Shown: piece by piece, positions 45,219 to 64,000 of the stretch
How positions within the stretch are numbered: the first letter of the stretch is position 1
How the letters are laid out: the number at the start of each line of letters is the position of its first letter
Assembly (NCBI RefSeq): GCF_015291885.1
Contig: NZ_CP036186.1
Span: forward strand, 558,001-622,000
From: Stutzerimonas stutzeri
GTDB taxonomy: Bacteria; Pseudomonadota; Gammaproteobacteria; Pseudomonadales; Pseudomonadaceae
Length of the DNA stretch: 64,000 nucleotides
Direction: 5' to 3'
Notes under the pieces: generated by a model
What the model was told of the DNA's origin: nothing
Seen by the model: the letters and a program-made list of their open reading frames with translations, nothing else
Databases searched by the model: none
Program-made: the position numbers and the translations under genes

Positions 45219-46409
45219 GGATGGTCTGAAAAAGACTTCCCGAATCTGGTGAAATACGCCGATCCCGTTGCCCGAGTTTCCCGATGAAGCAAATGACCTT
45301 CGCCGACGCCGAGTACGCCGGCAAGCGCAAGCAGACCCGCAAAGAGTTGTTCCTGATCGAGATGGATCAGGTGGTGCCGTGGAAAGGTTTGATTGCCCTG
45401 ATCGAGCCGCACTACCCCAAGGGTGAAGGTGGTCGTCCGGCGTATCAGCTGATGGCGATGCTGCGCGTACATTTGATGCAGAACTGGTTCGGCTACAGCG
45501 ATCCAGCGATGGAGGAGGCGCTGTACGAGACCACAATCTTGCGCCAGTTTGCCGGGCTGAACCTAGAGCGTATTCCCGACGAAACCACCATCCTCAATTT
45601 CCGTCGCCTGCTGGAGAAGCACGAGTTGGCGGCCGGGATTCTGGCGGTGATCAATGGTTACCTGGGCGATCGGGGCCTGTCGCTGCGCCAGGGCACCATC
45701 GTCGATGCCACGCTGATCCATGCGCCGAGTTCGACCAAGAACAAGGACGGTAAGCGTGACCCGGAAATGCACCAGACCAAGAAGGGCAATCAGTATTACT
45801 TCGGCATGAAGGCCCACATCGGCGCGGATACCGAGTCTGGCCTGGTGCACAGCGTGGTGGGGACGGCAGCCAACGTTGCTGACGTTACCCAGGTCGACAA
45901 ACTGCTGCATGGAAAGGAAAACATGGTCGGCGCCGACGCGGGTTACACCGGCGTAGAGAAACGCCCGGAACATGAAGGCCGGGAGGTGATCTGGCAGATT
46001 GCGGCCCGCCGCAGTACGTACAAGAAGCTGAGTAAGCGCAGTGCGCTGTACAAAGCCAAGCGCAAGATCGAGAAATCCAAGGCCCAGGTGCGCGCCAAAG
46101 TCGAGCACCCGTTCCGGGTGATCAAGCGCCAATTCGGCTACGTGAAGACACGCTTCCGTGGCCTGGCGAAGAACACCGCGCAGTTGGTGACACTGTTCGC
46201 GCTGTCGAACCTGTGGATGGCGCGCCGACATTTGCTGACGAATGCAGGAGAGGTGCGTCTGTAATGCGGGAAATGGCCGGCGCGAGGTGCTCGCGCCGGC
46301 TATAAATCCGGAAAGAGGGGATGATTTGATCGTTTTTTAGCCGAATCACCGTTTTGAAATCGGCAAGGGCTGGAGTCAGCCAGAAATACCTGACTACTTC
46401 AGACCATCC
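45219..46409 (+). mobile_element. IS5-family insertion sequence, copy 1
   Basis: A 1191-bp element with ends GGATGGTCTGAA and TTCAGACCATCC, flanked by the 4-bp target duplication TTAG (45215-45218 and 46410-46413), the YTAR target of the IS5 family. It inserted only about 10 bp after the sRNA terminator. It appears complete. Confidence 0.95.
45284..46264 (+). CDS. IS5-family transposase
   Basis: A 326-residue DDE transposase. The N-terminal DUF772-type domain (FLIEMDQVVPWKGLIALIEPHYPKGEGGRPAYQLMAMLRVHLMQNWFGYSDPAMEEALYE) is followed by the catalytic region: first Asp in GTIVDATLIHAPSS, second in MVGADAGYTGVEKR, Glu in KVEHPFRVIKRQFGYVKTRFRGLAKN (Y-R-E signature context). The frame is intact, so the element may be active. 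Confidence 0.95.
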   Translation: MKQMTFADAEYAGKRKQTRKELFLIEMDQVVPWKGLIALIEPHYPKGEGGRPAYQLMAMLRVHLMQNWFGYSDPAMEEALYETTILRQFAGLNLERIPDETTILNFRRLLEKHELAAGILAVINGYLGDRGLSLRQGTIVDATLIHAPSSTKNKDGKRDPEMHQTKKGNQYYFGMKAHIGADTESGLVHSVVGTAANVADVTQVDKLLHGKENMVGADAGYTGVEKRPEHEGREVIWQIAARRSTYKKLSKRSALYKAKRKIEKSKAQVRAKVEHPFRVIKRQFGYVKTRFRGLAKNTAQLVTLFALSNLWMARRHLLTNAGEVRL

Positions 46410-46486: not shown

Positions 46487-46750
46487 TTAATCCGGCATGC
46501 AAACGCCTGTGCCTCCCAACCCGCAATACCCCCCCGGATTTTTTGCCAGATACTGCTGGTGGTAGGCCTCTGCGTAATAGAACGTTGGGGCGTCGGCAAT
46601 TTCTGTGGTGATCTCCGGAAAGCCGGCATCGCGCAGACGCTGCTGAAAGCGATCACGACTGGCCTGCGCCTCGGTGTGCTGCTGTGCGTTCATGCAGTAG
46701 ATTGCCGAGCGGTACTGGCTGCCGATGTCATTGCCCTGGCGCATCCCTTG
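46487..46750 (-). pseudogene. msrA: msrA, 3' remnant cut by island insertion
   Basis: About 87 codons of the C-terminal part of peptide-methionine (S)-S-oxide reductase. The frame reads [19 protein letters not shown]...[30 protein letters not shown] and ends at TAA (46487-46489). The codons CAA GGG (46745-46750) still match the family ([10 protein letters not shown]), and the next codon upstream is a stop, so homology ends at 46750. The N-terminal half with the catalytic GCFW Cys is absent from the window, as expected if a mobile island inserted here. Confidence 0.88.
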
Positions 46751-47964
46751 TTAGTATGACTTGGCCTGGCAGCTATCTATGTAAACTGATATCACCGCCA
46801 GCCTAGCTTCTACGAATGGTCTGAGAAGGTCCTTTCTCGAAATATGCAGCCCAGCAACCATGAGTGTTGCAGATTAGCTATTTCGCGATACCGAGGCGTA
46901 TTCGGCGTTTCCGCAAAGTTCCAAAGTTTTGTTTCTTAAAAATTGAGTAACTGGATTTAGCCGTTCTGGGCTTATCTTTGTTTTGTACTGACTTTGCGAC
47001 AGGTCACAGAGGAGAGTACATGGTTCTGATTGTCAATGTTGACTTTCGCAGTAGTCACGATTCGAGGCTCTCACAGCTCTCACATAAAATTCCGCAGTTT
47101 TTCAATAATTCAGCTGAACCATATAGCGAGGCAAACGCCTACATGCGGTTTTTGTCCCGCCGATTAATGCCGAAAAGTATGAAAACTATCGCGGAACATA
47201 TTAAAGAGTTTTTGGTTTGGTCGGAAAACTCCGGAATTGAACTTATAGATGTTACGGATGATGTCTTTGACAGCTACGTAGATGCGCTCTGTGGTTATCG
47301 AAAGGCATCTGAAGTGCCGCTTAGCTGGAGTACTGTAAATGCAAGAGCGACAGGTGTTTATCGCTATCTTGTATGGTGTTATGAGAAAAGGTTATGCCCC
47401 GATTTGAATCCAGTCGAGGTCGCTAGCTCATACGGCGGGTTGCGGAAAAAATATAACACCAAAGGACATCACTCAAGAAAAATAAACGATCATACAAAAT
47501 TTCTTATCTTGGAAACTGCCGTTAAGTTCATTGATACCCTTTCCGAGGTTTCGGGGTTCGAAAATTCAGAAGTAAGGCTAAGGAATAAGTTGATTGGAGC
47601 GTTTATGCTTCAGTCGGGACTTAGGATATCTGAAGTAGTAGAATTTCCTTTAAAAGATCTGCCCGAGGTTAATCTAAGAGGGCACTCGACCCCACCGAGG
47701 GTTATCGGCAAGGGTGGGAAAGCAAGACTGGTTTTGATACCCAATAAGCTGCTTGTTAAGTTTTGGCAGTACGTAGATTTTGACAGGCAAAGAGTTGTAG
47801 AAAAAATAGAATCGACCGCTGGAAATGATGTTGTGGATGATGTGCTCTTCTTAAGTGAAAAAGGTCGAAGGTTGACAGCTAACTGGATAGAAAAGTTGTT
47901 TGCCAAGGCAAGTGAGAGACTTGGGGTTAAGACCGTACCACATGTGTTAAGGCATGGCGGCGGC

Positions 47965-49059
47965 AAAAACTGAGTGCAACACCTGACCTTTCCGGTACGG
48001 TGCTGCCCCTATGTCTTATACCGAACTCAGCGTTGAAGAGCGCGCCACCATTCAAATCGGTCGTACCCAAGGCTTCAGCCTGCGCAGGATTGCCTGCTTG
48101 ATCAACCGATCCCCTTCGACCATCAGCCGTGAGCTGCGCCGTAACCGAGGTGCTTGCGGTGGCTACTCGGCCCGCCTGGCCCAGCAGCAAATGCAGGCCC
48201 GCCGCCAGGTTTGTCGACCGATGCGAAAACTGTTGCCGGGTAGCGAGCGCTTCGAACTGGTGACCCATATGCTGCGTGAGCGTTTGTCTCCCGAGCAGAT
48301 TGCCGGCAAGCTGCGCAGCATGAACATACCCAACCTGCGAGATGCCTACGTCTGTCGCGAGACGATCTACAACGCGATCTATGCCCTGCCAGTGGGTGAG
48401 CTGCGTAAGGAGCTGATCATCTGTCTGCGCCAAGGCAAGACGACGCGCCGGCCGCGCTCTGGTGGCGTGGATCGGCGCGGCCAGATCCCCGAGATGGTCA
48501 GTATTCATGTGCGCCCGCCGGAGATTGAAGACAGGCTGATGCCGGGGCATTGGGAAGGCGACCTCATCAAGGGTAAGGCCAACGCCTCGTCCGTCGGTAC
48601 GCTGGTGGAACGCACCAGTGGCTACCTGATGTTGGTGAAGATGAACGACGCGACGGCGACTTCGGCACTGGAAGGCTTCAGCGCCGCGCTCAATAGCATG
48701 CCGCTGGAGATGCGCAAGAGCATGACTTACGACCAGGGCCGGGAGATGGCGCGACACGCCGAGATCACCCAAAGAACCGGCGTGGCGATCTACTTCTGCG
48801 ACCCGCACAGCCCCTGGCAGCGCGGCAGCAACGAAAACATCAACGGCCTGATTCGCCAGTACTTGCCCAAGGGCACAGACCTGTCGGTACATAGCCAGGA
48901 GAAGCTGGACGCCATTGCGCTGCAACTGAACATGCGACCGCGCAAGCGCTTCGACTTCAAATGCCCCATCGAGGTGATGGGAGAGGTCATGCAAAATTCC
49001 ATGGCAATGCGGCATGATGCTCCGGCTTCAATTCAATAACCGTGTTGCACTCAGCTCCT
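47965..49059 (+). mobile_element. IS30-family insertion sequence in ginA
   Basis: About 1095 bp with inverted ends CTGAGTGCAACAC (47970-47982) and GTGTTGCACTCAG (49042-49054), extending imperfectly by about 5 bp on each side. A 2-bp GC duplication is possible, but removing the element this way leaves the ginA frame off by one, so the exact ends are uncertain by a few bases. Confidence 0.85.
48011..49039 (+). CDS. IS30-family transposase
   Basis: A 342-residue IS30 transposase. The N-terminal HTH is YTELSVEERATIQIGRTQGFSLRRIACLINRSPSTISRELRRN. The DDE domain has PGHWEGDLIKG (first Asp), TYDQGREMARH (second Asp) and CDPHSPWQRGSNENINGLIRQYLPKGTDLS (Glu). It fills nearly the whole element and has no frameshift. 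Confidence 0.96.
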   Translation: MSYTELSVEERATIQIGRTQGFSLRRIACLINRSPSTISRELRRNRGACGGYSARLAQQQMQARRQVCRPMRKLLPGSERFELVTHMLRERLSPEQIAGKLRSMNIPNLRDAYVCRETIYNAIYALPVGELRKELIICLRQGKTTRRPRSGGVDRRGQIPEMVSIHVRPPEIEDRLMPGHWEGDLIKGKANASSVGTLVERTSGYLMLVKMNDATATSALEGFSAALNSMPLEMRKSMTYDQGREMARHAEITQRTGVAIYFCDPHSPWQRGSNENINGLIRQYLPKGTDLSVHSQEKLDAIALQLNMRPRKRFDFKCPIEVMGEVMQNSMAMRHDAPASIQ

Positions 49060-49249
49060 GCAACCGCCCATACATACGGTACCTACCATTACCTTTTGAA
49101 TAAAGATCTGGCGGGGCTGGCCAATTTAATGGGGCACTCTAATGAGAACACGACTCGGAATTTCTATGTCCATACGGCCTTACTGATTTCCTATGCTGGG
49201 ACATATAGAGCTCTACAGGATGAGATTGATAGAGTGATAGGGGCTGCTA

Positions 49250-51310
49250 ATGGATGAAAGCAGGTCCAGCTCTCTTCATTTCCTTACTGCGGCTGAGGAG
49301 CGTGCAGAAACAGAACTTAAATTCACCACAGAATGTAAAAACACGGCAAAACTATATGCGTATGACTTAAGTAGCAAGCCATACTCTGATTCGTTTCGGG
49401 ATGTACTCGGAGTAGTGGTGTGGGCTATTTACCGGCGAAGAAATATGATGGGGCATTTAAGTCGGTTGGCGATTATCGAGATACTTCCAAGGTTCTTTAA
49501 ATTTCTTGAAAGTGTTTTGATCTATAGAGCGGAGCAGCTCTCAGGGGATACGCTGCGATACTTTGCGGAATGGCTAAAAAAGGATAAAAGTTTAAGCTAT
49601 TCAACTGCGGCCTCTATGTATCGAAAAATTTCACCCGTATTTTTGCAAATGAGTAGCCATTATAAGGTTAGCGATAGTTTTATTCCCGTTCGTAATGCCT
49701 TTCCCAAGTCAAGCTCGCTTGTCTCGTCCTGTGTTGGATATGATCAGGAAGAGTTGAAAGGTATTCTCAATGCGGCTGTGCGTGGGATGCGTGAAAGCGC
49801 GTCTAGGTTTGAGAAGACGTATCAGCCTAAATGGATAGGAATAGCTCCGCCATTAGAAGATGTGGCTCCTATTGGTCCGTGTGGCAGTAGGTCATATTGG
49901 GCCAGTGAAGAATATAGAACCTGGTGGTGGGAGAATAATTGTGGATGTATGAGGCTTAATAGCAATGCACTTTACAAGCTGCCAAAAGGGCAGGCTTTTT
50001 TTCAGTCTACGGCACCAGACGGTAAAAAGGGCAGTGTCAAGTATTTGAGCGAATTTTATGACCGCATAGGTGCTGGCCCTGATTATAAGCCAAAGTATTT
50101 GGGGTTGCCCTGTCCTATCAATTACCGTACGCCATGGAAAAAGAAAGATTATCTTGTCTGGTACTGGGAAAACAAATTAGGTTGCAGAGCTCTATCTGGC
50201 GGTGAATTGAAGAAGATTGCGCCAGAGTTCTGGGGGGCTTTGAAAGAATATTTTGGGGGAAGGATAAAGGATTTTTACAAGGAGTTGGGTGTATATCGCT
50301 GGGTTCAAGCAGAGGACCTGATTCCATATTACTTGTTGCTCTTGATTAGAACGCAGTTGAATCCATCTACTGTCCAGCGCCTGACAATAGACTGCCTAGT
50401 TCCTGACCCGTTGAATGATGGTCGTGTCATGATTGACTGGAAAAAGTATCGGTCTTTTAAGAAAGGAATGACCATTCCTACTGATAAAGGCAACGATGGC
50501 TGGCCTGCGATGATAATTAAACGGGTGAGTGCCATTACCGAGTCTATTAGGGAGGACGGCCAAGATGAGTTGTGGATTGCAAACGCCAATCGTTTCAAAG
50601 TTAGCCAGCCTCTAGGTAGCTCTGCATTTAAAAGGGCTCTTCAAGCTTTTTCACGTAAACATGCATTAACAAGCAGTGATGGTAAACCTTTATCTATTCA
50701 GGCGCGACTGATTCGTCCAGCAATGGCTTGGAGTGAATACTTAAGGACTGAAGATATGAACTATCTTCAGGCGTTATTAGGACATGCCAGGCTTTCAACA
50801 ACTGCTGATTATTTGAGGCGGTTAGATGATCCAATCTTTCTGACCCGACGAGCAGTTCATCAGGATGCAGTTTTTGTTCGACTTTCCTCTGCTGAAGATG
50901 GCTCTTTGATTAGCGAGTCTCTGGAAGCAAGTGAGAGTACTCAAGGAATGCACGAGGCTCTTTTAAATCACTGCAGGGATCCGTTGAGATCTCCTGCCTC
51001 TGGGCAGAAAACTGGGTCCTTATGTAGCGCTAGTAGTGAGGTGTGTTTGGGATGTCAGAATTTAATAATAACCTTTCTTGATATAAAGAAGTACTTCTGC
51101 TTCATTGCCTTCCATGATTATCTTTTGCAGGCTGGAGATATAACTGATTTGGAGCACAGGAAGGCTACTTCTGAGAAGCGATTCATTTGGGAGAATTATA
51201 TACTTGTAAAATATGACTCAGGCGTTATTGAGAGAATAAGGTCTGAGGCTCTGACTTTTCCAATCCTGGAGTGGGATATTTCCCTGTATGAGGAGAGAAA
51301 GCATGGTTGA
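49250..51310 (+). CDS. ginB: ginB-like large tyrosine-recombinase-related protein
   Basis: A 686-residue protein, intact. The middle carries repeated W-rich stretches (SYWASEEYRTWWWENNCGC and KDYLVWYWENKLGC, each about 100 residues apart). The C-terminal half is integrase-like: Arg in LLLIRTQLNPSTVQRLTIDCL (box I), QARLIRPAMAWSEYL in place of the usual HxLRH (box II, so the first His is missing), LLGHARLSTTADYLRR (His and Tyr). A Cys cluster CSASSEVCLGCQN and a later Cys lie near the end. It is much longer than ordinary integrases, as with Tn554 TnpB and GinB. It overlaps ginA and ginC by 8 bp each. Its codon use is far more AT-rich than that of the flanking genes. Confidence 0.8.
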   Translation: MDESRSSSLHFLTAAEERAETELKFTTECKNTAKLYAYDLSSKPYSDSFRDVLGVVVWAIYRRRNMMGHLSRLAIIEILPRFFKFLESVLIYRAEQLSGDTLRYFAEWLKKDKSLSYSTAASMYRKISPVFLQMSSHYKVSDSFIPVRNAFPKSSSLVSSCVGYDQEELKGILNAAVRGMRESASRFEKTYQPKWIGIAPPLEDVAPIGPCGSRSYWASEEYRTWWWENNCGCMRLNSNALYKLPKGQAFFQSTAPDGKKGSVKYLSEFYDRIGAGPDYKPKYLGLPCPINYRTPWKKKDYLVWYWENKLGCRALSGGELKKIAPEFWGALKEYFGGRIKDFYKELGVYRWVQAEDLIPYYLLLLIRTQLNPSTVQRLTIDCLVPDPLNDGRVMIDWKKYRSFKKGMTIPTDKGNDGWPAMIIKRVSAITESIREDGQDELWIANANRFKVSQPLGSSAFKRALQAFSRKHALTSSDGKPLSIQARLIRPAMAWSEYLRTEDMNYLQALLGHARLSTTADYLRRLDDPIFLTRRAVHQDAVFVRLSSAEDGSLISESLEASESTQGMHEALLNHCRDPLRSPASGQKTGSLCSASSEVCLGCQNLIITFLDIKKYFCFIAFHDYLLQAGDITDLEHRKATSEKRFIWENYILVKYDSGVIERIRSEALTFPILEWDISLYEERKHG

Positions 51311-52762
51311 TCGTTTAGGCTCTCCTCTATATTTATTTACGAGAGATATTGTCCAGGAGTTAAATAATGAACTGGGCTTTTACACTAATCTCAAGGGCGT
51401 GTCGGAGTCGGTTAGAGCGAAAATTAAGATATCGACATTGTCATTTTATAAAGATAATGTTTGGGATTTTTCTGCCGAGTATCAAAGTTTACGCTCAAGG
51501 GCCGTTGTTCTTAAGTTCAGCCAGATTCATTTTGAGGATGGCAGTGACATAACCATGCCGGGTTATGAGTGTTATTTGAGTTCGGTTAAGGAGTATTGTT
51601 ATTCATTGTTGGTTGACCCTCCCTCTACATATCCCAAGTGGTCAACTATTTGCGTTGCAATGACAAAGGGGGTCAGAAATCTTTTAAGGTTCATGAGAGA
51701 GGCGGGGATCGACAGGTTTTCTGGTGTTATCGATCTTGATTTACAGGCGTTTCAGGATTGGGTGGCTGAATCCGAAAATAAAGCTGGAGGATTGATTACG
51801 GATAGGACGCTTAAGTCAAGAGTTTATGGGCTCTCGTGGCTCTATGAGCAATCCGGAAAGCTTACTGACGGATTGTGTACTTGGCCTTTTGGAGATAGTC
51901 GCAGTGAAACGGAATGGGCTAAGGATCGTGCGCAGAAAAAACTACCTAGAAAATATCAGACTACACCAGAGATGCCGGACTCGGTTGCGAAGAAGCTAAT
52001 TCTATGTGCGATAGATGATTTATCTATTGCTGGCAAATTGGAGGAAATAAGGGCGAAGCGTAAGGAATATAAGTCTAGAAGAGCAATTTCTAGAAAGCTG
52101 TTGCCCACTGGTGAGTATAAGCATTCTGTGGAGGTGATTAATCCATTTCCTTGGGATAGATATGGTATTTCTTCTTCGCATCAAGTAAAGACATTGGAGT
52201 CAAGGCTCCTTGTGGCTGGTTATATTTTGATAGCGATGTTTTCAGGTATGCGGTTCCATGAAATGGCCCATATTAAGGTTGGTCGTGCTAATAATTGGAA
52301 TGTGCGACCGGTTAGCGTTGATGGTGGGGTTAAGTATTTTTATTTCTTGATGTCGAAAACGAATAAATTGCAGCATGATGCTACTAGCTACCTCTGGCAA
52401 ACGATTCCTTACGTCGAGCGTGTTTTGGAGGCGCTTGAACAAGGCTTGGCTCATCGTTATAAGAGAGGAAATTCTTTTCTTTTCTCGGGCTACCTAAACA
52501 CTAGTGAAAGGATCTCACTTTCTACCATAAATTATGCCTTAAAAAAATATGCTGAATATCATTGTGTGGAATTTGATGGGGAGGTGTGGCCGGTTGCGAC
52601 ACATCAGTTTAGAAAGAAGTTCTCACGACTTATGATTAGGAGTGGTCTTGGTTTGGTTGCGCTTCAAGATCAATTGAAGCACTTTGATATTGAGATGACG
52701 AAGAATTACGGTGACTTAAATCTCTACTCTGAATTGCAGCAGGAGAAATTTACCCTGTCTAG

Positions 52763-53954
52763 GGATGGTCTGAAGTAGCCATGCATTTCCGGCTGACTTC
52801 AGCCTCCGCCGATTTTGAAAGCGGCAAACCGATCAAAAACGATCAGATAACCAGCTCATTTCGGTGTTTCTAGCCGCCGAGAACACCTCGCGGCGGCCAT
52901 TTCCTGCATTACAGGCGCACCTCTCCTGCATTGGTCAGCAAATGTCGGCGTGCCATCCACAGGTTCGACAACGCGAACAGCGTCACCAGTTGCGCAGTAT
53001 TCTTGGCCAAGCCACGGAAGCGCGTCTTCACATAACCGAACTGCCGCTTGATCACCCGAAACGGGTGCTCAACCTTGGCCCGTACCTGAGCCTTGGATTT
53101 CTCGATCTTGCGTCTGGCTTTGTACAGCGCGCTGCTCTTGCCCAGCTTTTTGTAAGTGCTGCGCCGTGCTGCCACCTGCCAAATCACTTCGCGGCCATCA
53201 TGCTCGGCACGCTTCTCGACGCCGGTATAACCCGCATCGGCGCAGACCACGTTTTCCTCGCCATGCAGCAACTTGTCGACCTGGGTGACGTCCGCCACGT
53301 TAGCCGCCGTACCTACCACGCTATGCACCAGGCCCGATTCGTCATCGACGCCGATGTGGGCCTTCATGCCAAAGTAATACTGGTTGCCCTTCTTGGTCTG
53401 GTGCATCTCTGGGTCGCGCTTGCCGTCTTTGTTCTTGGTCGAACTCGGCGCATTGATCAGCGTGGCATCGACGATGGTGCCTTGGCGCAGCGACAGGCCA
53501 CGGTCACCCAGGTAGCCATTGATCACGGCCAGGATGCCAGCAGCCAGTTCGTGTTTCTCCAGCAGGCGACGGAAGTTGAGGATGGTGGTTTCGTCGGGGA
53601 TACGCTCCAGGCTCAGCCCCGCGAACTGCCGCAGGATGGTGGTCTCGTACAGTGCCTCCTCCATCGCTGGATCGCTATAACCGAACCAGTTTTGCATTAG
53701 ATGAACCCGCAGCATTGCCATCAACGGGTACGCCGGACGGCCACCTTCACCCTTGGGGTAATGCGGCTCGATCAGGGCAATCAACCCCTTCCACGGCACC
53801 ACCCGATCCATCTCGATCAGGAACAGCTCTTTGCGGGTCTGCTTGCGCTTGCCGGCGTACTCGGCATCGGCGAAGGTCATCTGCTTCATCAGAAAACTCG
53901 GTGGGTGGCGTTCGGCTATTTTGCCAAAATCAGGAAGTCTTTTTCAGACTGTCC
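52763..53954 (-). mobile_element. IS5-family insertion sequence, copy 2, in ginC
   Basis: A 1192-bp element in the opposite orientation to copy 1. Ends GGATGGTCTGAA and TTCAGACTGTCC (two mismatches) are flanked by the target duplication CTAG (52759-52762 and 53955-53958). Confidence 0.95.
52909..53889 (-). CDS. IS5-family transposase, copy 2
   Basis: A 326-residue transposase differing from copy 1 at about 18 positions (for example MDRVVPW for MDQVVPW, LINAPSS for LIHAPSS, VDDESGLVHS for ADTESGLVHS). The DDE residues are intact. The divergence shows that the two copies arrived independently rather than by a recent local duplication. Confidence 0.95.
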   Translation of the reverse strand: MKQMTFADAEYAGKRKQTRKELFLIEMDRVVPWKGLIALIEPHYPKGEGGRPAYPLMAMLRVHLMQNWFGYSDPAMEEALYETTILRQFAGLSLERIPDETTILNFRRLLEKHELAAGILAVINGYLGDRGLSLRQGTIVDATLINAPSSTKNKDGKRDPEMHQTKKGNQYYFGMKAHIGVDDESGLVHSVVGTAANVADVTQVDKLLHGEENVVCADAGYTGVEKRAEHDGREVIWQVAARRSTYKKLGKSSALYKARRKIEKSKAQVRAKVEHPFRVIKRQFGYVKTRFRGLAKNTAQLVTLFALSNLWMARRHLLTNAGEVRL

Positions 53955-54362
53955 CTAGAGAGAAGTACGACGAAATTATGCTGACTCAGGTCCCTATTAT
54001 TGGTGGTGGTGCTGATGAAGTTGAGGGGTATAGGAAGGCTTTTATGGGTATGCCTGCCGATGATAGAGAGCGGCTCTTGGATAATCTATCCAAGAAAGCG
54101 CTTATTGAGCAAATGGATGATGGCTTGTGTATGTTTAGAGCCAAAAAGGCGCTTTGTGGGGGAGATAGTGCAAACTGTCGTCCGGCAGATTGTAATAACT
54201 CTATTATTCCTGCTGAAGGTATGAGGCGAACCTTGACCTGGCGTAAGAGCGAGAATCAAAGAATGAGAGACTTCTTTTCTGGTCAGCCATTAAAGGTGGC
54301 CCATTTAGATGACAGGATCTCTGAAATTGATAAATTGCTCAGTCAAATGGATGGCTTAAATT

Positions 54363-54833
54363 GTGAATAATAAAAAACCTCGTGGCAGCTTGGTAGGCCT
54401 CAAAGAAAATCGAGAGGCCCTGAAGGCAAAAAATACTGAGGCAATGTTGAAAGTTGTTGAGCAACTGGGGAAGGAAAAACCAGATGCGCTATGGTCTTAC
54501 AAGGACGTTTGGTCTGGTGCGGGCTTGAAAAGTAATGTTGCCCTCAATAGTCCATGGAATTCTCATGTTCGTGATGCAATCGACGCTCATAACTCTAGTA
54601 TTCGAGAAGCATCAGAGCTTGAGGTGTTGGCTTTAACGCAAAAAAAGACGCTGAGGGTAATAAATGGAGAATTGAGGAAGCAGGTTGAAGTCATGCGAAA
54701 AGAAAGAGATCAAGCGTTGTCGAAGATTGCTATTTATGAGGCTGAAACTGACTTCTATAAAAGAAAATGTGAGGGGCTTTTGAGGGTGAATGAGCGCCTA
54801 AGGAGTAGCCCCGGCGGTTTAAGTGTCGTTTAG
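54363..54833 (+). CDS. ginD: ginD-like small coiled-coil protein
   Basis: A 156-residue basic protein starting at a GTG that overlaps the ginC stop by 8 bp. Residues 1-75 are mixed (KPRGSLVGLKENREALKAKNTEAMLKVVEQL, WSYKDVWSGAGLKSNVALNSPWNSHVRDAID). Residues about 80-145 form a coiled coil (LTQKKTLRVINGELRKQVEVMRKERDQALSKI). Size, position and coiled coil match GinD and recall TnpC of Tn554, accessory factors for their recombinases. The frame is intact. Confidence 0.75.
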   Translation: MNNKKPRGSLVGLKENREALKAKNTEAMLKVVEQLGKEKPDALWSYKDVWSGAGLKSNVALNSPWNSHVRDAIDAHNSSIREASELEVLALTQKKTLRVINGELRKQVEVMRKERDQALSKIAIYEAETDFYKRKCEGLLRVNERLRSSPGGLSVV

Positions 54834-55026
54834 TCAATTGGCGTTATAAGACGTCTCTGTTTTCGCTATGGTCGTCTCAGGTAGCTATCTCCCTTACCTG
54901 TGGGCCGTTGCGCTGCATCTGTCGCCATCTGCCTGGTTCGGGCGATTCTGTTAACCAGCTACTAGGCGGTCTTGCTTTGACGTAACATCACATCACGTTA
55001 CTGACCCAAGCCAGGTGCCCAAGCCT

Positions 55027-55200
55027 ATGAAAACTAGCAATCGCGTTGTGATCGAGGTTGATCCTGCCCAAAAGCAGCAGATCTACGCCGCACTCAAGGC
55101 ACGTGGGTTGACCATGCGCGAGTGGTTTCTGCAGCAGGTGAGCCAGGAACTTTCCATTCCCAAGCCCACCACCCCCTCCAGTCAGTCGAGCAACGATTAA
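55027..55200 (+). CDS. small ribbon-helix-helix-like protein
   Basis: A 57-residue protein: RVVIEVDPAQKQQIYAALKARGLTMREWFLQQVSQEL reads as a beta strand followed by two helices, the Arc/MetJ-like layout of small DNA-binding or antitoxin proteins, with a Ser/Thr/Pro-rich tail. An in-frame GTG at 55015 is an alternative start. Upstream, GTAAC-ATCACATCAC-GTTAC (54982-55001) is an inverted repeat that might be its operator. No toxin gene is adjacent. Function not established. Confidence 0.55.
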   Translation: MKTSNRVVIEVDPAQKQQIYAALKARGLTMREWFLQQVSQELSIPKPTTPSSQSSND

Positions 55201-55236
55201 GTAATTCTCAGGGAGTCGAGCAGATGCTCAAGACAG

Positions 55237-55326
55237 TCAAGCTGCGATGGAGGCACCGGGTTCAGAACACTCCTGAATGACCTGGGCCTTAAAAGATTTG
55301 CTGTAGGTACGGCGCTGAGGGGGCAT
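55237..55326 (-). pseudogene. IS66-family tnpA remnant
   Basis: About 30 codons on the minus strand, MPPQRRTYSKSFKAQVIQEC followed by SEPGASIAA, match the start of the IS66 TnpA accessory protein, then the frame is lost. The rest of the element is absent. Apart from this scar, nothing coding was seen between 55201 and the sHsp20 gene at 55584. Confidence 0.75.
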
Positions 55327-55583
55327 GGAAAATCCGCTTGATGGGCCATGGCCTTCGGCGGCGGTGTCGGGAAGGTGTGTTGGACGGACGGATACTGTTG
55401 AACTACGTTGTCTGGGGCAACGGAAGTGTTTCGGCCCGACTCTGGAACGCGATCCGCAGCGACGACTGGGCAATTCCGCACGTTGGCCTGAGCAGCCTCG
55501 GGGAAATCGTCGGCTGGGCGCGCTGTCCGTCGCCGCGGGCAAACGGATTGAGTGAGTCTTCAACTGATTTCTGGAGGTATGAC

Positions 55584-56153
55584 ATGGACATTGATTTCAA
55601 GAAGTTGGCTCCCTGGAACTGGTTCAAGAAGGAGCAGGAAGAACAACAGAGCACTGCCTCGCTGCCCGTGCAGCGCAATGACCTGCCGGTGGCGGGTGGG
55701 CCCGTCAGTCCCATCCTGCAATTGCACCGCGAGATCGACCGCCTCTTCGACGACACGTTTCGAGGCTTCGGTTTCCCGGCGCTGGCCATGCCACGCTGGC
55801 CGTCGGACTGGCCGGGCCTGCTGAAGCCGGCGCTGGACATCCAGGAGACCGACAAGCAGTACAAGATCGCCCTGGAAGTGCCCGGCGTCGAGGAAAAAGA
55901 CATCCAGATCACGCTCGACAACGACGTGCTGCTGGTGCGCGGTGAAAAGCGTCAGGAGCAGGAAACGAAAGACGGCGGTTTCCACCGGGTGGAGCGCTGC
56001 TACGGCAGCTTTCAGCGCGCTCTGAACCTGCCGGCCGATGCCAACCAGGACACGATCAAGGCCGCTTTCAAGAACGGCGTGCTCACGATCACGATGGAAA
56101 AGCGCGAGGCCAGTACGTCCAAGCAGGGGCGCTCGATCCCGATCAACGGCTGA
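55584..56153 (+). CDS. small heat-shock protein, tLST sHsp20
   Basis: A 189-residue Hsp20 chaperone that holds unfolding proteins. It begins MDIDFKKLAPWNWFKKEQEE, the N terminus seen in the first tLST/LHR gene. The alpha-crystallin domain runs from about 80 to 180 (PALDIQETDKQYKIALEVPGVEEKDIQITLDNDVLLVRGEKRQE ... FKNGVLTITMEK), and the C-terminal R-S-I-P-I is the I-x-I anchor. GGAGG 6 nt before ATG 55584 fixes the start; the frame is open much further upstream but without a ribosome site. It is the first gene of the stress locus. Confidence 0.93.
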   Translation: MDIDFKKLAPWNWFKKEQEEQQSTASLPVQRNDLPVAGGPVSPILQLHREIDRLFDDTFRGFGFPALAMPRWPSDWPGLLKPALDIQETDKQYKIALEVPGVEEKDIQITLDNDVLLVRGEKRQEQETKDGGFHRVERCYGSFQRALNLPADANQDTIKAAFKNGVLTITMEKREASTSKQGRSIPING

Positions 56154-56246
56154 CGCGGGGCAGCGCGTTTTTCTCAAAAACCACAAAGAGATGAGGCACC
56201 GTGATCGGCGGTGCCTCGTCAGATCAATCTTTACAGGAGCATCAGC

Positions 56247-59096
56247 ATGGCCAGAAAACAATGCCAAGTCTGCGGCCAGCCCGCCACGGTGCGGGTGGAA
56301 GCCAATCTCAATGGTCGCCACAGCACCATGCTGTTGTGTGACGATCACTATCGCCAACTGGTGCGCCAGCAAAAGCGCACCGTCTCACCGCTGGAAGCCT
56401 TGTTCGGCTCGCGCAGCGGGCTGTTCGAAGACTTCCTTGGCAGCGACTTCTTCCGCATCGGTGACGACGCACCGTCCATGGCGGCCGATACCGACGAGGT
56501 GGTCGATGCCTCGTTCGGCGAACCCGCCCCGGCCGGTACGGGCACCGCGCGCCGTCGCGGCAGTGGGCTCGCCAGCCGTATCAGCGAACAGTCCGAGGCC
56601 CTATTGCAGGAGGCCGCCCGACACGCTGCAGAGTTCGGGCGCGCCGAAGTCGATACCGAACACCTGCTGCTGGCGCTATCCGACAGCGACGTGGTCAAGA
56701 CCATCCTGGGGCAGTTCAAGATCAAGGTCGATGACCTCAAGCGCCAGATCGAATCCGAAGCCAAGCGCGGCGATAAGCCGTTCGAGGGCGAGATCGGCGT
56801 GTCGCCCCGGGTCAAGGACGCGCTCAGCCGTGCTTTCGTGGCCTCCAACGAACTCGGCCACTCTTATGTCGGGCCGGAGCATTTCCTGATCGGGCTCGCC
56901 GAGGAAGGCGAAGGTTTGGCGGCCAACCTGCTGCGCCGTTACGGCCTCACGCCGCAAGCGCTGCGCCAGCAGGTAAGCAAGGTGGTCGGCAAAGGGGCCG
57001 AGGATGGCCGCGCCGAGACGCCGACCAACACGCCGGAACTCGACAAGTATTCGCGCGACCTCACCAAGATGGCGCGCGAGGGCAAGCTCGATCCGGTCAT
57101 CGGCCGCGCGCAGGAGATCGAGACGACCATCGAAGTGCTGGCCCGGCGCAAGAAGAACAACCCGGTGCTGATCGGCGAGCCCGGCGTCGGCAAGACCGCC
57201 ATCGTCGAAGGGCTGGCGCAGCGCATGGTCGCCGGCGAAGTGCCCGAGACGCTGCGCGACAAGCGTCTGGTCGAACTCAACATCAACGCCATGGTGGCAG
57301 GCGCCAAGTACCGCGGCGAGTTCGAGGAGCGCGTGCAGAAGGTGCTCAAGGAAGTGACCGAGCACCAGGGCGAGATGATTCTCTTCATCGATGAAGTGCA
57401 CACCATCGTCGGTGCCGGCCAGGGTGGCGGCGAAGGCGGGCTGGACGTGGCCAACGTGTTCAAGCCGATGATGGCGCGCGGCGAGCTGAACCTGATCGGC
57501 GCCACCACGCTCAACGAGTATCAGAAGTACATCGAGAAGGACGCCGCGCTGGAGCGTCGTTTCCAGCCGGTGATGGTGCCCGAGCCGACGGTAGCGCAGA
57601 CCATGATGATCCTGCGCGGCCTGCGCGACACCTTCGAGGCGCACCACAAGGTCAGCATCACCGAGGATGCGATCATCGCCGCCGCCGAGTTGTCGGACCG
57701 CTACATCACCGCGCGCTTTTTGCCTGACAAGGCCATCGACCTGCTTGACCAGGCGGCCGCACGCGTGAAGCTGTCAGCCACGGCCCGCCCGGTGGCGGTG
57801 CAAGAGCTGGAGTCCGAACTGCACCAGTTGCGGCGTGAGCAGGACTACATGGCCTCGCGCAAGCAGTACGACAAGGCCGCCGAGCTGGGCAAGCGCATCG
57901 AGGCAAAAGAGGCCGAACTCAAGAAGCTCATCGAAGATTGGGAGCGCGAGCGCGCCTCGGGCAGCGCCGAAGTCAAGGCCGAGCATGTCGCGCAGATCGT
58001 CTCGCGCCTGACCGGCATTCCGGTCAACGAGCTGACGGTGGAGGAACGCGAGAAGCTGTTGCATCTGGAGCAGCGGCTGCACGAGCGCCTGGTGGGCCAG
58101 GACGAAGCGGTGCGCGCGGTGGCCGATGCCGTGCGGTTGTCGCGCGCGGGGCTGCGCGAAGGCGGCAAGCCGGTGGCGACTTTTCTGTTCCTCGGGCCGA
58201 CCGGCGTGGGCAAGACCGAGCTCGCCAAGGCGCTGGCCGAGTCCATCTATGGCGATGAAGGTGCGCTGCTGCGCATCGACATGTCCGAGTACGGGGAACG
58301 CCATACCGTGGCACGCCTGGTGGGCGCGCCTCCGGGCTATGTGGGCTATGACGAGGGGGGGCAGCTCACCGAGAAAGTGCGGCGCAAACCCTACAGCGTG
58401 TTGTTGCTCGATGAGATCGAAAAAGCGCACCCCGACGTCTACAACATCCTGTTGCAGGTATTCGACGACGGGCGGCTCACCGACGGCAAGGGCCGGGTGG
58501 TGGATTTCACCAATACCATCATCATCGCCACCTCGAACTTGGGCTCGGACATCATCCAGCGTCGGCTGAAGGCGCGTGGTGCGGCCGGCGAGGAGTACGA
58601 AAAGACCAAGGGCGAGGTGATGGACGTGCTGCGCGGCCACTTCCGGCCCGAGTTCCTCAACCGCATCGACGAGATCATCGTCTTCCATGCGCTGGGCAAG
58701 GAGGAGATCCGCCATATCGTCGGCCTGCAGCTCGATCGTGTGGCCCGCAACGCCGCCAGCCAGGGCGTGACGCTGACCTTCGATCAGACCTTGATCGATC
58801 ACTTCGCGGAGGAAGGCTACAAGCCCGAGTTCGGCGCGCGCGAGCTCAAGCGGCTGATCCGCAGCGAGCTGGAAACCGCGCTGGCACGCGAGATGCTCGG
58901 TGGTGGCATCGGCAAGGCCGATCACGCCAGCGCCCGCTGGGATGACAAGGCCGAACGGGTGGTCTTCGAGCGCCAGGAGCCAGCCGCGCAGCCGGCCGAG
59001 CCTGAAAAGCCCGATGCAGCGAACGTGGCCGAGGCACCGCCGAACGGCGAGAGCAAGCCTGCGCGCAAGAAGAAGTCAGCGGGCGGCGGATCTTGA
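56247..59096 (+). CDS. clpG: ClpG/ClpK stand-alone AAA+ disaggregase
   Basis: A 949-residue Hsp100 ATPase, the main heat-tolerance factor of tLST. The N-terminal extension has a CCCH zinc site (Cys6, Cys9, Cys31, His34) specific to ClpG/ClpK, then a Clp_N domain (about 110-250), AAA1 with GEPGVGKT at 310-317 and [14 protein letters not shown], a short middle coiled coil (about 525-585), AAA2 with GPTGVGKT at 650-657 and [29 protein letters not shown], and a charged C-terminal tail ([20 protein letters not shown]...). The start is ATG 56247 with AGGAG 7 nt upstream. It disaggregates proteins without DnaK in published work on homologues. Confidence 0.96.
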
Positions 59097-59112
59097 GCGA
59101 TGGGAGGCTGTC

Positions 59113-60543
59113 GTGTCCGACCCCAATGGGCTGACATGGGCAGCCACCCTCGTGTCGCTGGCGGTCGCTGTTCCCACAGCGGGGCACGCGGTCATCTACA
59201 AGCGTGACCCTCGATCGGCCACGCTGTGGGTACTGCTGATCGCCTTGTTGCCGCTGGGCGGTTCGCTGCTGTATGGGCTGTTCGGCATCAACCGTTACCA
59301 GCGGCGGGCGCGGCGGCTCTTCCCGGGGGCAGATCCTGCTGCTCGGCAGGACCTCTCGCCCACGATGCCCGAGGCTGTATCGCCGCCGCTTGCCGGTCTG
59401 GCCCACCTGGTGGGACGCGCCACCGGCCAGTCGCTGACCAGCGGCAACCGCATCGAGCCGCTCATCGATGGCGAGCAGGCCTACCCGGCCATGCTCGCTC
59501 CCATCGAATCGGCGCGGCACAGCGTCGCGCTGGCTTCGTACATCTTCGACGGCCAAGGCATCGGGGCGCAGTTCGTCGATGCGCTGCGCCGGGCTCATGC
59601 GCGCGGCGTGCAAGTGCGGGTGCTGATCGACGACGTGTATGCCCGCTGGACGCCCCGCAGCGCCTACCGCGCCTTGCAGCGCGCCGGCGTTCCGGTGGCG
59701 ACGTTCAACCCGACATTGATTCCCGCGCGCCTGCATGCCGCGCATCTGCGCAATCACCGCAAGCTGCTGGTGATCGATGGCGAGACGGGTTTCACCGGCG
59801 GCATGAACATCTTCGGTTCGTATTGGCGGCCCGATGCGCCGGGCCAGGCCTGTCACGATTTGCACTTTCGTCTGCGCGGGCCGGTGGTAGAGCATCTGAT
59901 GCGGAGCTTCACCGATGATTGGTGCGATACCACGGGCGAGCGGCTCAGCAAGGGTTACTGGGGCGAACCGCCCGTAATGGCTGATGAGCAAGGAACCTCT
60001 TGGGCGCGCGGCATCGAGGCCGGTCCCGACGAGGCCCTGGACCGGATGCGCTGGACCTTCATGGGCGCTTTGAGCGCGGCGAAGCATTCGGTGCGCATCT
60101 GGACACCTTACTTCGTCCCCGATCAGCCGATGATCGCGGCGCTGAGTACGGCCGCGTTGCGCGGCGTGCGTATCGACGTGCTGACGCCCGCAAACGGCGA
60201 CCATCCCACGGTGCAATGGGCCGCGCGCGCCCACTACTGGCAGGTGCTGGAGCACGGTGTGCGCATCTTCGAACGGCCTGGCCCGTTCGACCACAGCAAG
60301 CTGATGCTGGTAGACGGAGCGTGGTGCTGCCTGGGTTCGGCCAATTGGGATGCGCGCAGTTTGCGCCTCAACTTCGAGTTCAATGTGGAGGTGTACGACA
60401 CCGCGTTGTCTAGGCGGCTGTCATCCCTTTTTGATGCCGCTCGTGATGCGTCGGGCGAGATATCGGCGAAGGCGTTGCGCGCCCGCCCGCTGGCCATCCG
60501 CTTGCGCGACGGGGTGGCCCGTCTGTTCACCCCCGTTCTCTAG
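59113..60543 (+). CDS. phospholipase D / cardiolipin synthase-like protein
   Basis: A 476-residue membrane protein with two N-terminal helices (residues about 5-22 and 36-55) and two PLD catalytic motifs: NHRKLLVIDGETGFTGGMNIFGSYW (His about 215) and FDHSKLMLVDGAWCCLGSANWDARSL (His about 394). Both keep H-x-K-x4-D. This is the arrangement of cardiolipin synthases; within tLST it probably adjusts membrane lipids during heat. The start is GTG 59113 with GGAGG 5 nt upstream, 16 bp after clpG. Confidence 0.9.
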   Translation: MSDPNGLTWAATLVSLAVAVPTAGHAVIYKRDPRSATLWVLLIALLPLGGSLLYGLFGINRYQRRARRLFPGADPAARQDLSPTMPEAVSPPLAGLAHLVGRATGQSLTSGNRIEPLIDGEQAYPAMLAPIESARHSVALASYIFDGQGIGAQFVDALRRAHARGVQVRVLIDDVYARWTPRSAYRALQRAGVPVATFNPTLIPARLHAAHLRNHRKLLVIDGETGFTGGMNIFGSYWRPDAPGQACHDLHFRLRGPVVEHLMRSFTDDWCDTTGERLSKGYWGEPPVMADEQGTSWARGIEAGPDEALDRMRWTFMGALSAAKHSVRIWTPYFVPDQPMIAALSTAALRGVRIDVLTPANGDHPTVQWAARAHYWQVLEHGVRIFERPGPFDHSKLMLVDGAWCCLGSANWDARSLRLNFEFNVEVYDTALSRRLSSLFDAARDASGEISAKALRARPLAIRLRDGVARLFTPVL

Positions 60544-60570
60544 CGACACGACTTGCGAGGTACCCTGCCC

Positions 60571-62388
<1,818 letters not shown>

Positions 62389-62475
62389 AAACAGTAGTAG
62401 GTGCCATTCAGAGTAAACCGACGGCTCTGTTCAGTGCGTCATCCAATTCGTCGGCATTGTTCAAGGAGAACCGAT

Positions 62476-62934
62476 ATGTCTGCATTGACTCCGTGGGACC
62501 CCTTCCGGGAACTGGATGAATTGCAAAACCGCCTGGCGACGATGTTCGGACGGACACCCCAGCGACAGGGCGCCCGTACCGGCAACGAAGCCATGACCAC
62601 GGCGGACTGGGCACCAATGGCGGACATCAGCGAGGATGAGAACGCATTCCTCCTCAAGCTGGATCTGCCGGAGGTCCCCAAGGATGCCGTGCGCGTCAGC
62701 GCGGAAAACGGTGTGCTCACCATCAGCGGCGAGCGCAAACTGGAAAAAGAGGAGCAGGGCAAGAAGTTCCACCGCATCGAACGTGCGTATGGCCGCTTTG
62801 TGCGCAGCTTTGTCTTGCCTGACAACGTTGATCCGACCAAGGTGACGGCTTCGATGAAAGACGGCGCGCTGGAAGTGCGGCTTGTCAAGGCCGAGCAAGC
62901 CAAACCGAAACAGATTGAAATCTCAGTCAACTAA
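62476..62934 (+). CDS. second small heat-shock protein of tLST
   Basis: A 152-residue Hsp20 with the classical N terminus MSALTPWDPFRELDELQNRLATMFG, the alpha-crystallin domain (about 40-140, with DENAFLLKLDLPEVPKDAVRVSAENGVLTISGERK and VKASMKDGALEVRLVK-like end) and a short tail ending PKQIEISVN (I-x-I). It is only distantly related to the first sHsp20 of the locus, so the two may form different oligomers. AAGGAG lies 7 nt before ATG 62476. Confidence 0.95.
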   Translation: MSALTPWDPFRELDELQNRLATMFGRTPQRQGARTGNEAMTTADWAPMADISEDENAFLLKLDLPEVPKDAVRVSAENGVLTISGERKLEKEEQGKKFHRIERAYGRFVRSFVLPDNVDPTKVTASMKDGALEVRLVKAEQAKPKQIEISVN

Positions 62935-62956
62935 CTTTAATCAAGAGCCCAAGATC

Positions 62957-63871
62957 ATGAATATCAAACAGCCAAAATACATCTTCTCCGCACTTGCCCT
63001 GGCGGTCGTCGTCGGACTGAGCGGACCGGCTCTGGCCCAATCAGCGGCAGGTTCTAGCCCAGGTGCTGCAGCACCCTCTGCCGCATCCAAGGCGGCGCAG
63101 CCACAGGTAGATGACAAGGTCGCCCGGGAAGCCGCGAAAAAGCGCGCCGAACTCGCCCAAGATGCAATCACTGCGCTGGCCAAGACCCATGAGGCATTGA
63201 TCCTCCTTGATGCAAAGAAGACCAAGGAGGCGCTCGCTGCGCTGGAACTGGCCAGCGGAAAGCTGGAACTGGTATTGGCGCGTGAGCCAAAACTTGCTTT
63301 GGCGCCCGTCGATGTAAGCGTCATCACCCATGACATCCACGCCGACGTGGAATCGGTCAAGAAAGCGGTCAAGTTGTCTCGGGAGTTGTTGGATGATGGC
63401 GAGGTGCAAAAGGCACGGCCCATCGTCGCCAATCTTGCCAGCGAAATCGTGATCGAAACCGACAACCTGCCGATGGCAACGTACCCGGCAGCGATCAAGT
63501 CGGCCGCACGGCTCATCGACAGCGGCAAGATCGACGACGCCAAGGCGGAACTCGCCCGAGCACTGAACACGCTGGTGGTGACCTCGGTCGCCTTTCCTCT
63601 GCCCGTGCTACGGGCCGAAGCCGCGATGGCAAAAGCGGAAAAGCTGGCCGAGACCGACAAGCGCGATGCCAAACAGAGCGAGGAGCTCAGCGCCCTGCTG
63701 GCCTACGTGCGCACGGAAATCGAGCTGGCGCAGATCCTGGGTTATGGCAAGAAGGCGGATTTCGAACCCATCTTCGATCAGGTGAAGTCCATTGAGCAAA
63801 AGTCGGCTGGTGGCAAAAGCGGCAAGGGATGGTTCGACGAGTTGAAGACGCGCATCCAAAAGCTGTTTTGA
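62957..63871 (+). CDS. yfdX: YfdX family protein of tLST
   Basis: A 304-residue YfdX-domain protein with a signal peptide (residues 1-27, MNIKQPKYIFSALALAVVV... ending ALA-Q), hence periplasmic. An Ala-rich linker leads to a helical YfdX domain rich in Lys/Ala/Glu (EAAKKRAELAQDAITALAKTHEALILLDAKKTKEALAALELASGKLELVLAREP). E. coli YfdX is linked to acid stress and has chaperone-like behaviour. Within tLST it usually comes as a pair with a second YfdX, and a new gene starts 100 bp downstream. The start is ATG 62957. Confidence 0.9.
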   Translation: MNIKQPKYIFSALALAVVVGLSGPALAQSAAGSSPGAAAPSAASKAAQPQVDDKVAREAAKKRAELAQDAITALAKTHEALILLDAKKTKEALAALELASGKLELVLAREPKLALAPVDVSVITHDIHADVESVKKAVKLSRELLDDGEVQKARPIVANLASEIVIETDNLPMATYPAAIKSAARLIDSGKIDDAKAELARALNTLVVTSVAFPLPVLRAEAAMAKAEKLAETDKRDAKQSEELSALLAYVRTEIELAQILGYGKKADFEPIFDQVKSIEQKSAGGKSGKGWFDELKTRIQKLF

Positions 63872-63973
63872 GGTGATGAAGGGGCTGACTGCTCTGTCGG
63901 TCAGTCTCGCGATGTTCGCATTCAGCCCCAATAGATTCGCCTATTTTCACTATCTCATACGAGGCATATCACC

Positions 63974-64000
63974 ATGAATGAGCAAACACCGAATCCCAAT
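63974..64000 (+). CDS. start of the next tLST gene (partial)
   Basis: ATG at 63974 opens MNEQTPNPN and runs off the window, with GAGG about 8 nt upstream. By position in known tLST loci this would be the second yfdX or hdeD gene; nine codons cannot decide. Confidence 0.4.

What the first reader, a model, noticed from the sequence alone, without database searches (positions are those of the whole stretch)
46751..64000. A tLST heat-resistance locus carried on a GInt-type (ginABCD) island
Seen: a four-gene overlapping operon (about 380, 686, about 623 and 156 residues), three proteins with tyrosine-recombinase boxes and one small coiled-coil protein, begins about 270 bp inside a break in msrA. 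It is followed by sHsp20-ClpG-PLD-FtsH-sHsp20-YfdX. Known: GInt islands are defined by ginABCD at one border with variable cargo; tLST/LHR loci move between Proteobacteria. Inferred: this GInt vehicle carries the tLST. I do not recall this link being described and it would give a mechanism for tLST spread.
Basis: partly seen in the sequence, partly recalled or inferred. Interest (0 to 1): 0.85.

Follow-up and report, generated by a model that had tools for sequence, protein, structure and literature searches.

The report
Mobile island replaces gene it breaks
A block of heat-resistance genes in this bacterium rides on a mobile-type DNA element that has inserted into the repair gene msrA and carries its own, differently spelled msrA copy, so the host probably does not lose the function.

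Summary
The island is real and its right border is now found. It is 26,239 bp long (window 46751 to 72989 in window numbering, i.e. beyond the window) and splits msrA: the C-terminal half lies left, the N-terminal half right. It carries a truncated tLST. The recombinase operon does not fit published GInts: its second protein is the degenerate one, the order reported for strand-biased circularizing elements (SEs: intA-tfp-intB-srap). It forms a clade of its own. Two IS insertions break intA and intB, so this copy looks immobile. Relatives sit in msrA of five other genomes and on one plasmid. Three of these genomes and the plasmid share a nearly identical phosphite (ptx) element, so the backbone has moved recently and swaps cargo. 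The strongest result was not in the finding: all six msrA insertions, and the plasmid copy, carry a second, complete msrA near the right end, diverged at the attachment site. In the three occupied genomes counted in one search it is the only complete msrA. Whether it is expressed or rescues the host was not tested. Nothing found makes this the general vehicle of tLST.

The parts
46523..46744 (-). 3' half of host msrA (C-terminal half of the protein); the N-terminal half lies outside the window at contig 630990-631229
   Evidence: PF01625 positions 78-152; junction
46745..46750 (.). left 6-bp spacer of attL (CCCTTG), taken as host-derived
   Evidence: reads as msrA Gln-Gly codons
46751..46760 (.). 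left element end, inward TTAGTATGAC; 8 of 10 bases match the right end TTAGGAGGAC of the G011 relative
47020..47955 (+). intA-like tyrosine recombinase, 5' fragment (RHRHY in the unbroken plasmid relative)
47956..49068 (+). IS30-family insertion that splits intA
   Evidence: gap in homology; one search lists ten further copies at 100% in the genome
49069..49257 (+). intA 3' fragment
49250..51310 (+). tfp-like protein, 686 aa, predicted tyrosine-recombinase fold lacking box-I Arg and HxxR His
51303..52765 (+). intB-like tyrosine recombinase, 5' fragment
52759..53958 (-). IS5-type insertion that splits intB
53955..54370 (+). intB 3' fragment
54363..54833 (+). srap/ginD-like small protein, 156 aa
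54834..54884 (.). end of the conserved left backbone shared at 97% with relatives
55243..55583 (.). left part of the tLST stretch, shared with an E. coli plasmid tLST where a transposase gene is annotated
55584..56153 (+). tLST sHsp20
56247..59096 (+). tLST clpK (ClpG_GI), NF033606 2159 bits
59113..60543 (+). tLST cardiolipin synthase (PLD)
60571..62388 (+). tLST ftsH
62476..62934 (+). tLST second sHsp20
62957..63871 (+). tLST yfdX1
63974..64000 (+). start of tLST yfdX2; the island continues outside the window to contig 630989 with hdeD, orf11, trx, a PAS/GGDEF-type gene, an IS5, psiE, truncated htpX and the complete cargo msrA (contig 630303-630827, minus strand)

Best explanation
This is a site-specific integrative element that works like an SE (intA-tfp-intB-srap), in a family of its own, which recognises a conserved stretch of msrA coding for Gln-Gly-Met and inserts beside a 6-bp spacer. 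The tLST is cargo, in the slot where close relatives carry a phosphite-oxidation (ptx) operon. Near its far end the element carries a complete msrA from a different MsrA subgroup, whose DNA at the attachment site is diverged; it most likely replaces the msrA that the insertion destroys and is itself not a target. Shown: both borders, halves of msrA, spacer pattern, a nearly identical element at several sites, conserved cargo msrA. Inferred: the circular copy-out/copy-in route, that the cargo msrA is expressed and rescues, that it escapes insertion, and that this IS-broken copy cannot move alone.
For: Split msrA with both halves. An element 99.7-100% identical, wherever both are held, in G011, G044, P. 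chengduensis (G475) and a P. aeruginosa plasmid, with different left spacers. Left and right spacers differ in 8 of 8 elements with both ends read; in G044 the left spacer equals the unoccupied site of congeners with the same flanks, and the plasmid copy carries the msrA-type spacer GCCCTG at its right, as expected if it came from an msrA site. A complete cargo msrA near the right end in 6 of 6 msrA insertions and in the plasmid copy. In G000, G011 and G044 it is the only complete PF01625 gene, while 9 unoccupied congeners in the same search have 1 (6) or 2 (3) complete copies. At the site all 7 cargo genes encode TTLNRQG where the 5 host genes read there encode TQGMRQG, with a different spacer.
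Against: Four of the seven elements are nearly identical and G474's right end is 99% like theirs, so the independent lineages are about three (ptx type, this one, Halomonas). In G474 and the Halomonas genome another complete msrA exists besides the cargo copy. The TTLNRQG spelling is shared, with small variants, by all 26 nearest database relatives printed, so it need not have evolved to evade insertion. A same-family element in comM (G1051) carries no msrA in the 68 kb read and no comM copy, so replacing the target is not a family rule. By BLASTP the second protein is nearer the unassigned 'big' class (4e-22) than the SE-like set (5e-15), though the first and third are nearer the SE-like set. 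No activity was tested.
Confidence: 0.75

Rival explanations
1. It is a true GInt (ginABCD) carrying a tLST; the naming of the degenerate gene is a detail.
For: Four-gene operon at one border, variable cargo, 6-nt staggered cuts and hybrid att sites are also described for GInts. Bardaji et al. accepted any three consecutive homologues at a permissive threshold.
Against: GInts have GinC, the third protein, degenerate; here the second is. SE and GInt are reported to differ in gene order. Insertion here cuts msrA in the middle, whereas GInts are said probably not to inactivate their targets completely.
Confidence: 0.15
2. The second msrA is chance cargo and has no rescuing role.
For: Cargo regions of such elements vary; expression was not tested; the Halomonas cargo MsrA is not clearly sister to the others; two of six occupied genomes have a further complete msrA.
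Against: Same gene near the same end in 7 of 7, while the middle cargo differs; it is the only complete msrA in 3 of 3 occupied genomes counted, and in G475. None in 31 control stretches of other or related elements, though most of those are 9-14 kb around the core genes and lack right ends.
Confidence: 0.2
3. The tLST entered by its own element or by homologous recombination and the recombinases play no part in its transfer.
For: Its left part is shared with an E. coli tLST where a transposase gene is annotated; other tLSTs are flanked by IS5, IS3 or Tn7 elements (passage); both catalytic recombinase genes are broken here; none of the other six elements found here carries a tLST in the parts read.
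Against: The tLST lies wholly inside the two att ends and stops 36 bp before the right module (htpX remnant to 72270, module from 72307); no flanking repeats found.
Confidence: 0.35

Closest known systems
SE, strand-biased circularizing integrative element (Idola et al. 2023, PMC10214605)
   Same: Order intA-tfp-intB-srap, degenerate second protein, imperfect inverted ends, 6-bp spacer from the host on the left and brought in on the right
   Different: Tfp 686 aa against 548-565 aa in the SE-like set here; Srap-like protein has no TetR_N or DUF6262 match and no clear BLASTP link; separate clade; msrA target with a replacement gene
GInt (Bardaji et al. 2017, PMC5385486)
   Same: Four-gene operon at one end, three recombinase-fold proteins, variable cargo
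   Different: Degenerate protein is second not third; target gene cut in the middle, with a substitute on board
Tn554 / Tn552-II with target-gene-like gene tgl (PMC12486829, passages read)
   Same: Spacer brought in from the donor; a copy of the target gene on board, suggested there as a possible rescue
   Different: No tfp counterpart in Tn554; the tgl there still contains a copy of the att sequence, whereas here the site is diverged
tLST / LHR / TLPQC
   Same: Gene order and 94.4% nucleotide identity over 11.7 kb to an E. coli plasmid tLST
   Different: No kefB or degP found, htpX cut short, different GGDEF gene; lies in an msrA element rather than beside IS, Tn7 or a tRNA gene

Membership tests
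SE | intA-tfp-intB-srap order with catalytic first and third and degenerate second protein | tested here: met
   18 operons with the plasmid relative standing in for the window: box-I Arg present in first and third and replaced by Asn in the second in 18 of 18; HxxR His of the second lost in 17 of 18 (L020 keeps it)
SE | split attB kept in attL and attR | tested here: met
SE | imperfect inverted repeats around a 6-bp spacer | tested here: met
   TTAGTATGAC / TTAGGAGGAC 8 of 10; G1051 TTAGTCGGACC / TTAGGCGGACC 10 of 11, read by eye. Published SEs have 13-19 bp repeats, so ours are short
SE | host spacer at left, donor spacer at right | tested here: met
   8 of 8 differ; direct check against an unoccupied site in one case, G044. 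Four of six right spacers in msrA insertions also read as Gln-Gly, so codons alone do not decide those
SE | homology of Tfp and Srap to the published sets | tested here: inconclusive
   No published sequence was fetched; against the SE-like set Tfp E 5e-15 and Srap E 0.03; Tfp is nearer the 'big' class (4e-22); own clade
SE | strand-biased circles without an empty site | not testable with these tools
   needs PCR and sequencing
GInt | third protein (GinC) is the degenerate one | tested here: not met
   against the text
GInt | sequence membership in GinA-D sets | not tested
   No authentic GInt sequence found; a look beside gdhA in 20 of 56 congeners gave none
Tn554 | two recombinases plus TnpC, no Tfp | tested here: not met
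   definition
RIT | three recombinases; the lack of a fourth gene is recalled | tested here: not met
   A fourth gene is present in relatives
tLST | sHsp20-clpK-cls-ftsH-sHsp20-yfdX1-yfdX2-hdeD-orf11-trx | tested here: met
   no kefB or degP match, htpX truncated

The most novel reading that the evidence does not exclude
A family of SE-like elements follows a break-and-replace strategy: it destroys a conserved housekeeping gene at a conserved codon motif and supplies an insertion-proof version from a different subgroup, which makes the insertion nearly free, may make loss of the element costly (the host would lose its only msrA if excision left a scar), and so stabilises any cargo, here a heat and oxidant tolerance locus.
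Probability: 0.55. Interest if true: 0.8.

Novelty: new variant of a known kind. Interest (0 to 1): 0.68.

Why it matters
A tLST review says that data on the elements flanking tLST are too scarce for a systematic analysis (passage). This gives one fully bordered chromosomal example with a testable mechanism. The replacement msrA is a clear, testable case of a mobile element paying for its own insertion, with a natural comparison: the same family in msrA with a replacement and in comM without one. MsrA protects against oxidants (general knowledge), as the tLST is reported to do against chlorine (abstract of PMC8290217), so the two may also act together (inference).

Tried and rejected
Rejected: GInt membership, because the degenerate gene is in the wrong place. 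Rejected: a 6-bp target duplication, because left and right differ in 8 of 8. Rejected: a common tLST vehicle, on the plasmid counts. Tried without result: solved-structure sequence search with the Tfp profile, no match at E 0.01, though the fold search then gave only tyrosine recombinases in the 50 rows shown of 113 (TM-scores to the query about 0.2, one domain being aligned); looking for an authentic GInt beside gdhA in 20 of 56 congeners with a motif scan; an empty plasmid site for the P. aeruginosa copy (1 of 53 records covers most of the query, the plasmid itself); the MsrA tree, which does not settle whether the Halomonas cargo gene shares one origin with the others; the ClpK survey, 1 of 369 class genomes over the cut-off, that one being the window's own. 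Searches for print on tLST with GInt or SE, or on msrA as a target: and in-paper finds 18, 19, 21, 23, 49, 51, 85, 96, 97; none linked them in what I saw (open-licence library only, listings mostly). Papers: PMC10214605 parts 1-4 of 10 and passages; PMC5385486 parts 1-3 of 6 and passages; PMC8290217, PMC8407380, PMC7685784 and PMC12486829 passages only.
Full report
Observation. The window is contig 558001-622000 of a one-contig 4,639,098-bp genome. PF01625 finds three msrA matches in the genome: a complete gene at contig 630354-630815, positions 1-80 at 630990-631229, and positions 78-152 at 604523-604753. The two partial ones are the broken host gene; the complete one lies inside the island next to the right border. 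The element runs from window 46751 to 72989 in window numbering, 26,239 bp.

Operon. In the P. aeruginosa plasmid NZ_CP115216.1 the unbroken operon encodes 373, 686, 623 and 156 aa. The window copy matches it at about 97% but is interrupted by an IS30-family element in the first gene and an IS5-type element in the third. In 18 aligned operons, with the plasmid relative standing in for the window, the first and third proteins keep the box-I Arg in 18 of 18; the second has Asn there in 18 of 18 and lacks the HxxR His in 17 of 18, L020 keeping it. In the 'big' class of 7 the third protein has Tyr for that His. Among 23 close relatives of the window's second protein, including itself, the box-I Arg is Asn in 23, the His is lost in 23, and the catalytic Tyr is kept in 23. 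The second protein is predicted with moderate confidence (mean pLDDT 78.4, pTM 0.55) and its best PDB matches are Cre, XerA and XerH.

Which family. Published SEs have the degenerate protein second and GInts third (PMC10214605 parts 1-4, PMC5385486 parts 1-3). Three well-supported clades appear in trees of each recombinase (27, 27 and 25 rows, of which 3 fall outside them): this one; one that I take for SEs because its fourth protein has a TetR_N match just under Pfam's cut-off and is annotated TetR-like, as described for Srap; and one with a larger second protein. Roots are midpoint roots, for drawing only. BLASTP is mixed: the first and third proteins are nearer the SE-like set than the big class, the second is nearer the big class, and the fourth has no clear link to either. 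No published SE or GInt protein was fetched. I therefore call it SE-like, in a family of its own.

Ends and spacers. Spacers left/right: G000 CCCTTG/TCCCTG; G011 CCCCTG/TCCCTG; G044 TCCCTG/CCCGTG; G474 GCCCTG/TCCCTG; G475 GCCCTG/TCCCTG; Halomonas GCCCTG/GCCATG; plasmid CTTCTG/GCCCTG; G1051 ACCTTG/ACCCTG (the last read by eye). They differ in 8 of 8. All six left spacers in msrA read as Gln-Gly codons; so do four of the six right ones, so codons alone do not decide every case. In G044 the flanks and left spacer equal the unoccupied site of four congeners (L038, L039, L040, L047). The plasmid's right spacer is of the msrA type, so that copy probably came from an msrA site.

Distribution. Of 30 fetched congener loci (of 56 places in 55 of 56 genomes), 3 are occupied and 27 have both msrA halves adjacent; the other 26 places were not opened. 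With the Tfp profile, family members were found in 3 of 398 genomes of the family (109 of 398 have some match, the weaker ones being other classes or other recombinases), 2 of 398 of the genus of G440 and 1 of 390 of the order, the window's own. G908 lies on a 4.8-kb contig and was not used. The operon is known to be unbroken where it lies on one contig: G011, G044 and the plasmid; in G474, G475 and Halomonas contig ends hide part of it. The ptx-type elements in G011, G044, P. chengduensis (G475) and the plasmid are 99.7-100% identical where both are held, in stretches that include the ptx genes. G474 matches them at 99% over 4.7 kb on the right but 92.5% on the left, and its cargo was not seen.

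The second msrA. It was found in G000, G011, G044 (the same strain as G473), G474, G475 and Halomonas LBP4 (G477), and on the plasmid. It was not found in three family members elsewhere: the whole of plasmid NZ_AP015030.1, the 19-kb L020 (right end not seen) and the 68-kb stretch of G1051. G1051's element is inserted in a ComM/YifB-type gene: the two flanking pieces match Mg_chelatase (PF01078) and ChlI (PF13541), the name comM being recalled, and no copy of them lies inside the element. In one search, 12 genomes were searched: the 3 occupied ones each have only the cargo copy and two halves; of 9 unoccupied, 6 have one and 3 have two complete genes. In one search, G475 also has only the cargo copy, whereas G474 and G477 have a further complete msrA. 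Where the 5 host genes read encode [12 protein letters not shown], the 7 cargo genes encode HDPTTLNRQGAD or -ND; over the att region the right arm is largely kept while the spacer and left arm differ. This spelling is shared by the cargo gene's nearest database relatives, so capture of a site-free gene is a simpler reading than evolution of resistance.

The tLST. Homology to an E. coli plasmid tLST runs from 55243 to 67199 at 94.4-97.9% and resumes at 71605-72270 (74%) over psiE and a truncated htpX; no kefB or degP match was found. The element's right module starts at 72307. The E. coli locus lies beside tnsA-E, and Kamal et al. note IS5, IS3 and Tn7 elements at tLST borders (passage). So tLST uses several vehicles and this is one more.

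Mechanism. Most likely steps: the recombinases join the two ends in a circle with the left spacer (inferred from SE work); the circle recombines with the msrA site, keeping the host spacer at left and leaving its own at right (pattern shown); the cargo msrA supplies MsrA (inferred). In this genome both catalytic recombinases are interrupted and the Tfp search found no second family member, so the tLST is probably fixed here unless helped in trans.

Noticed in passing
L022 (plasmid NZ_CP115216.1) and G011, G044, G475: A nearly identical phosphite-oxidation (ptx) element of about 27 kb occurs in msrA of three genomes of different species and on a P. aeruginosa plasmid, a sign of recent spread across genera.
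   Followed up: partly
G1051 contig 2 (L184-L187): A family member sits in a comM/yifB-type gene, a known island hotspot (recalled), with no copy of its target inside; its cargo was not annotated.
   Followed up: partly
L067, L100-L103, L106, L108, L109, L112: A third class of four-gene recombinase operons with a second protein of 780-1410 aa; I could not assign it to GInt, SE or RIT.
   Followed up: partly
L173 (E. coli plasmid NZ_CP061755.1): A tLST directly beside a Tn7-like tnsABCDE set; whether it is Tn7-like cargo was not tested.
   Followed up: no
window 45284-46264, 48011-49039, 52909-53889 and contig copies: IS5-type and IS30 elements are numerous in this genome; one IS5-type copy lies just left of the broken msrA.
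   Followed up: no
window numbering 67379-70186: A 935-aa protein with a GGDEF-like stretch lies where the E. coli tLST has kefB and a shorter diguanylate cyclase gene.
   Followed up: no
L104, L107, L068: Three operons fall outside the three main classes in the recombinase trees.
   Followed up: no
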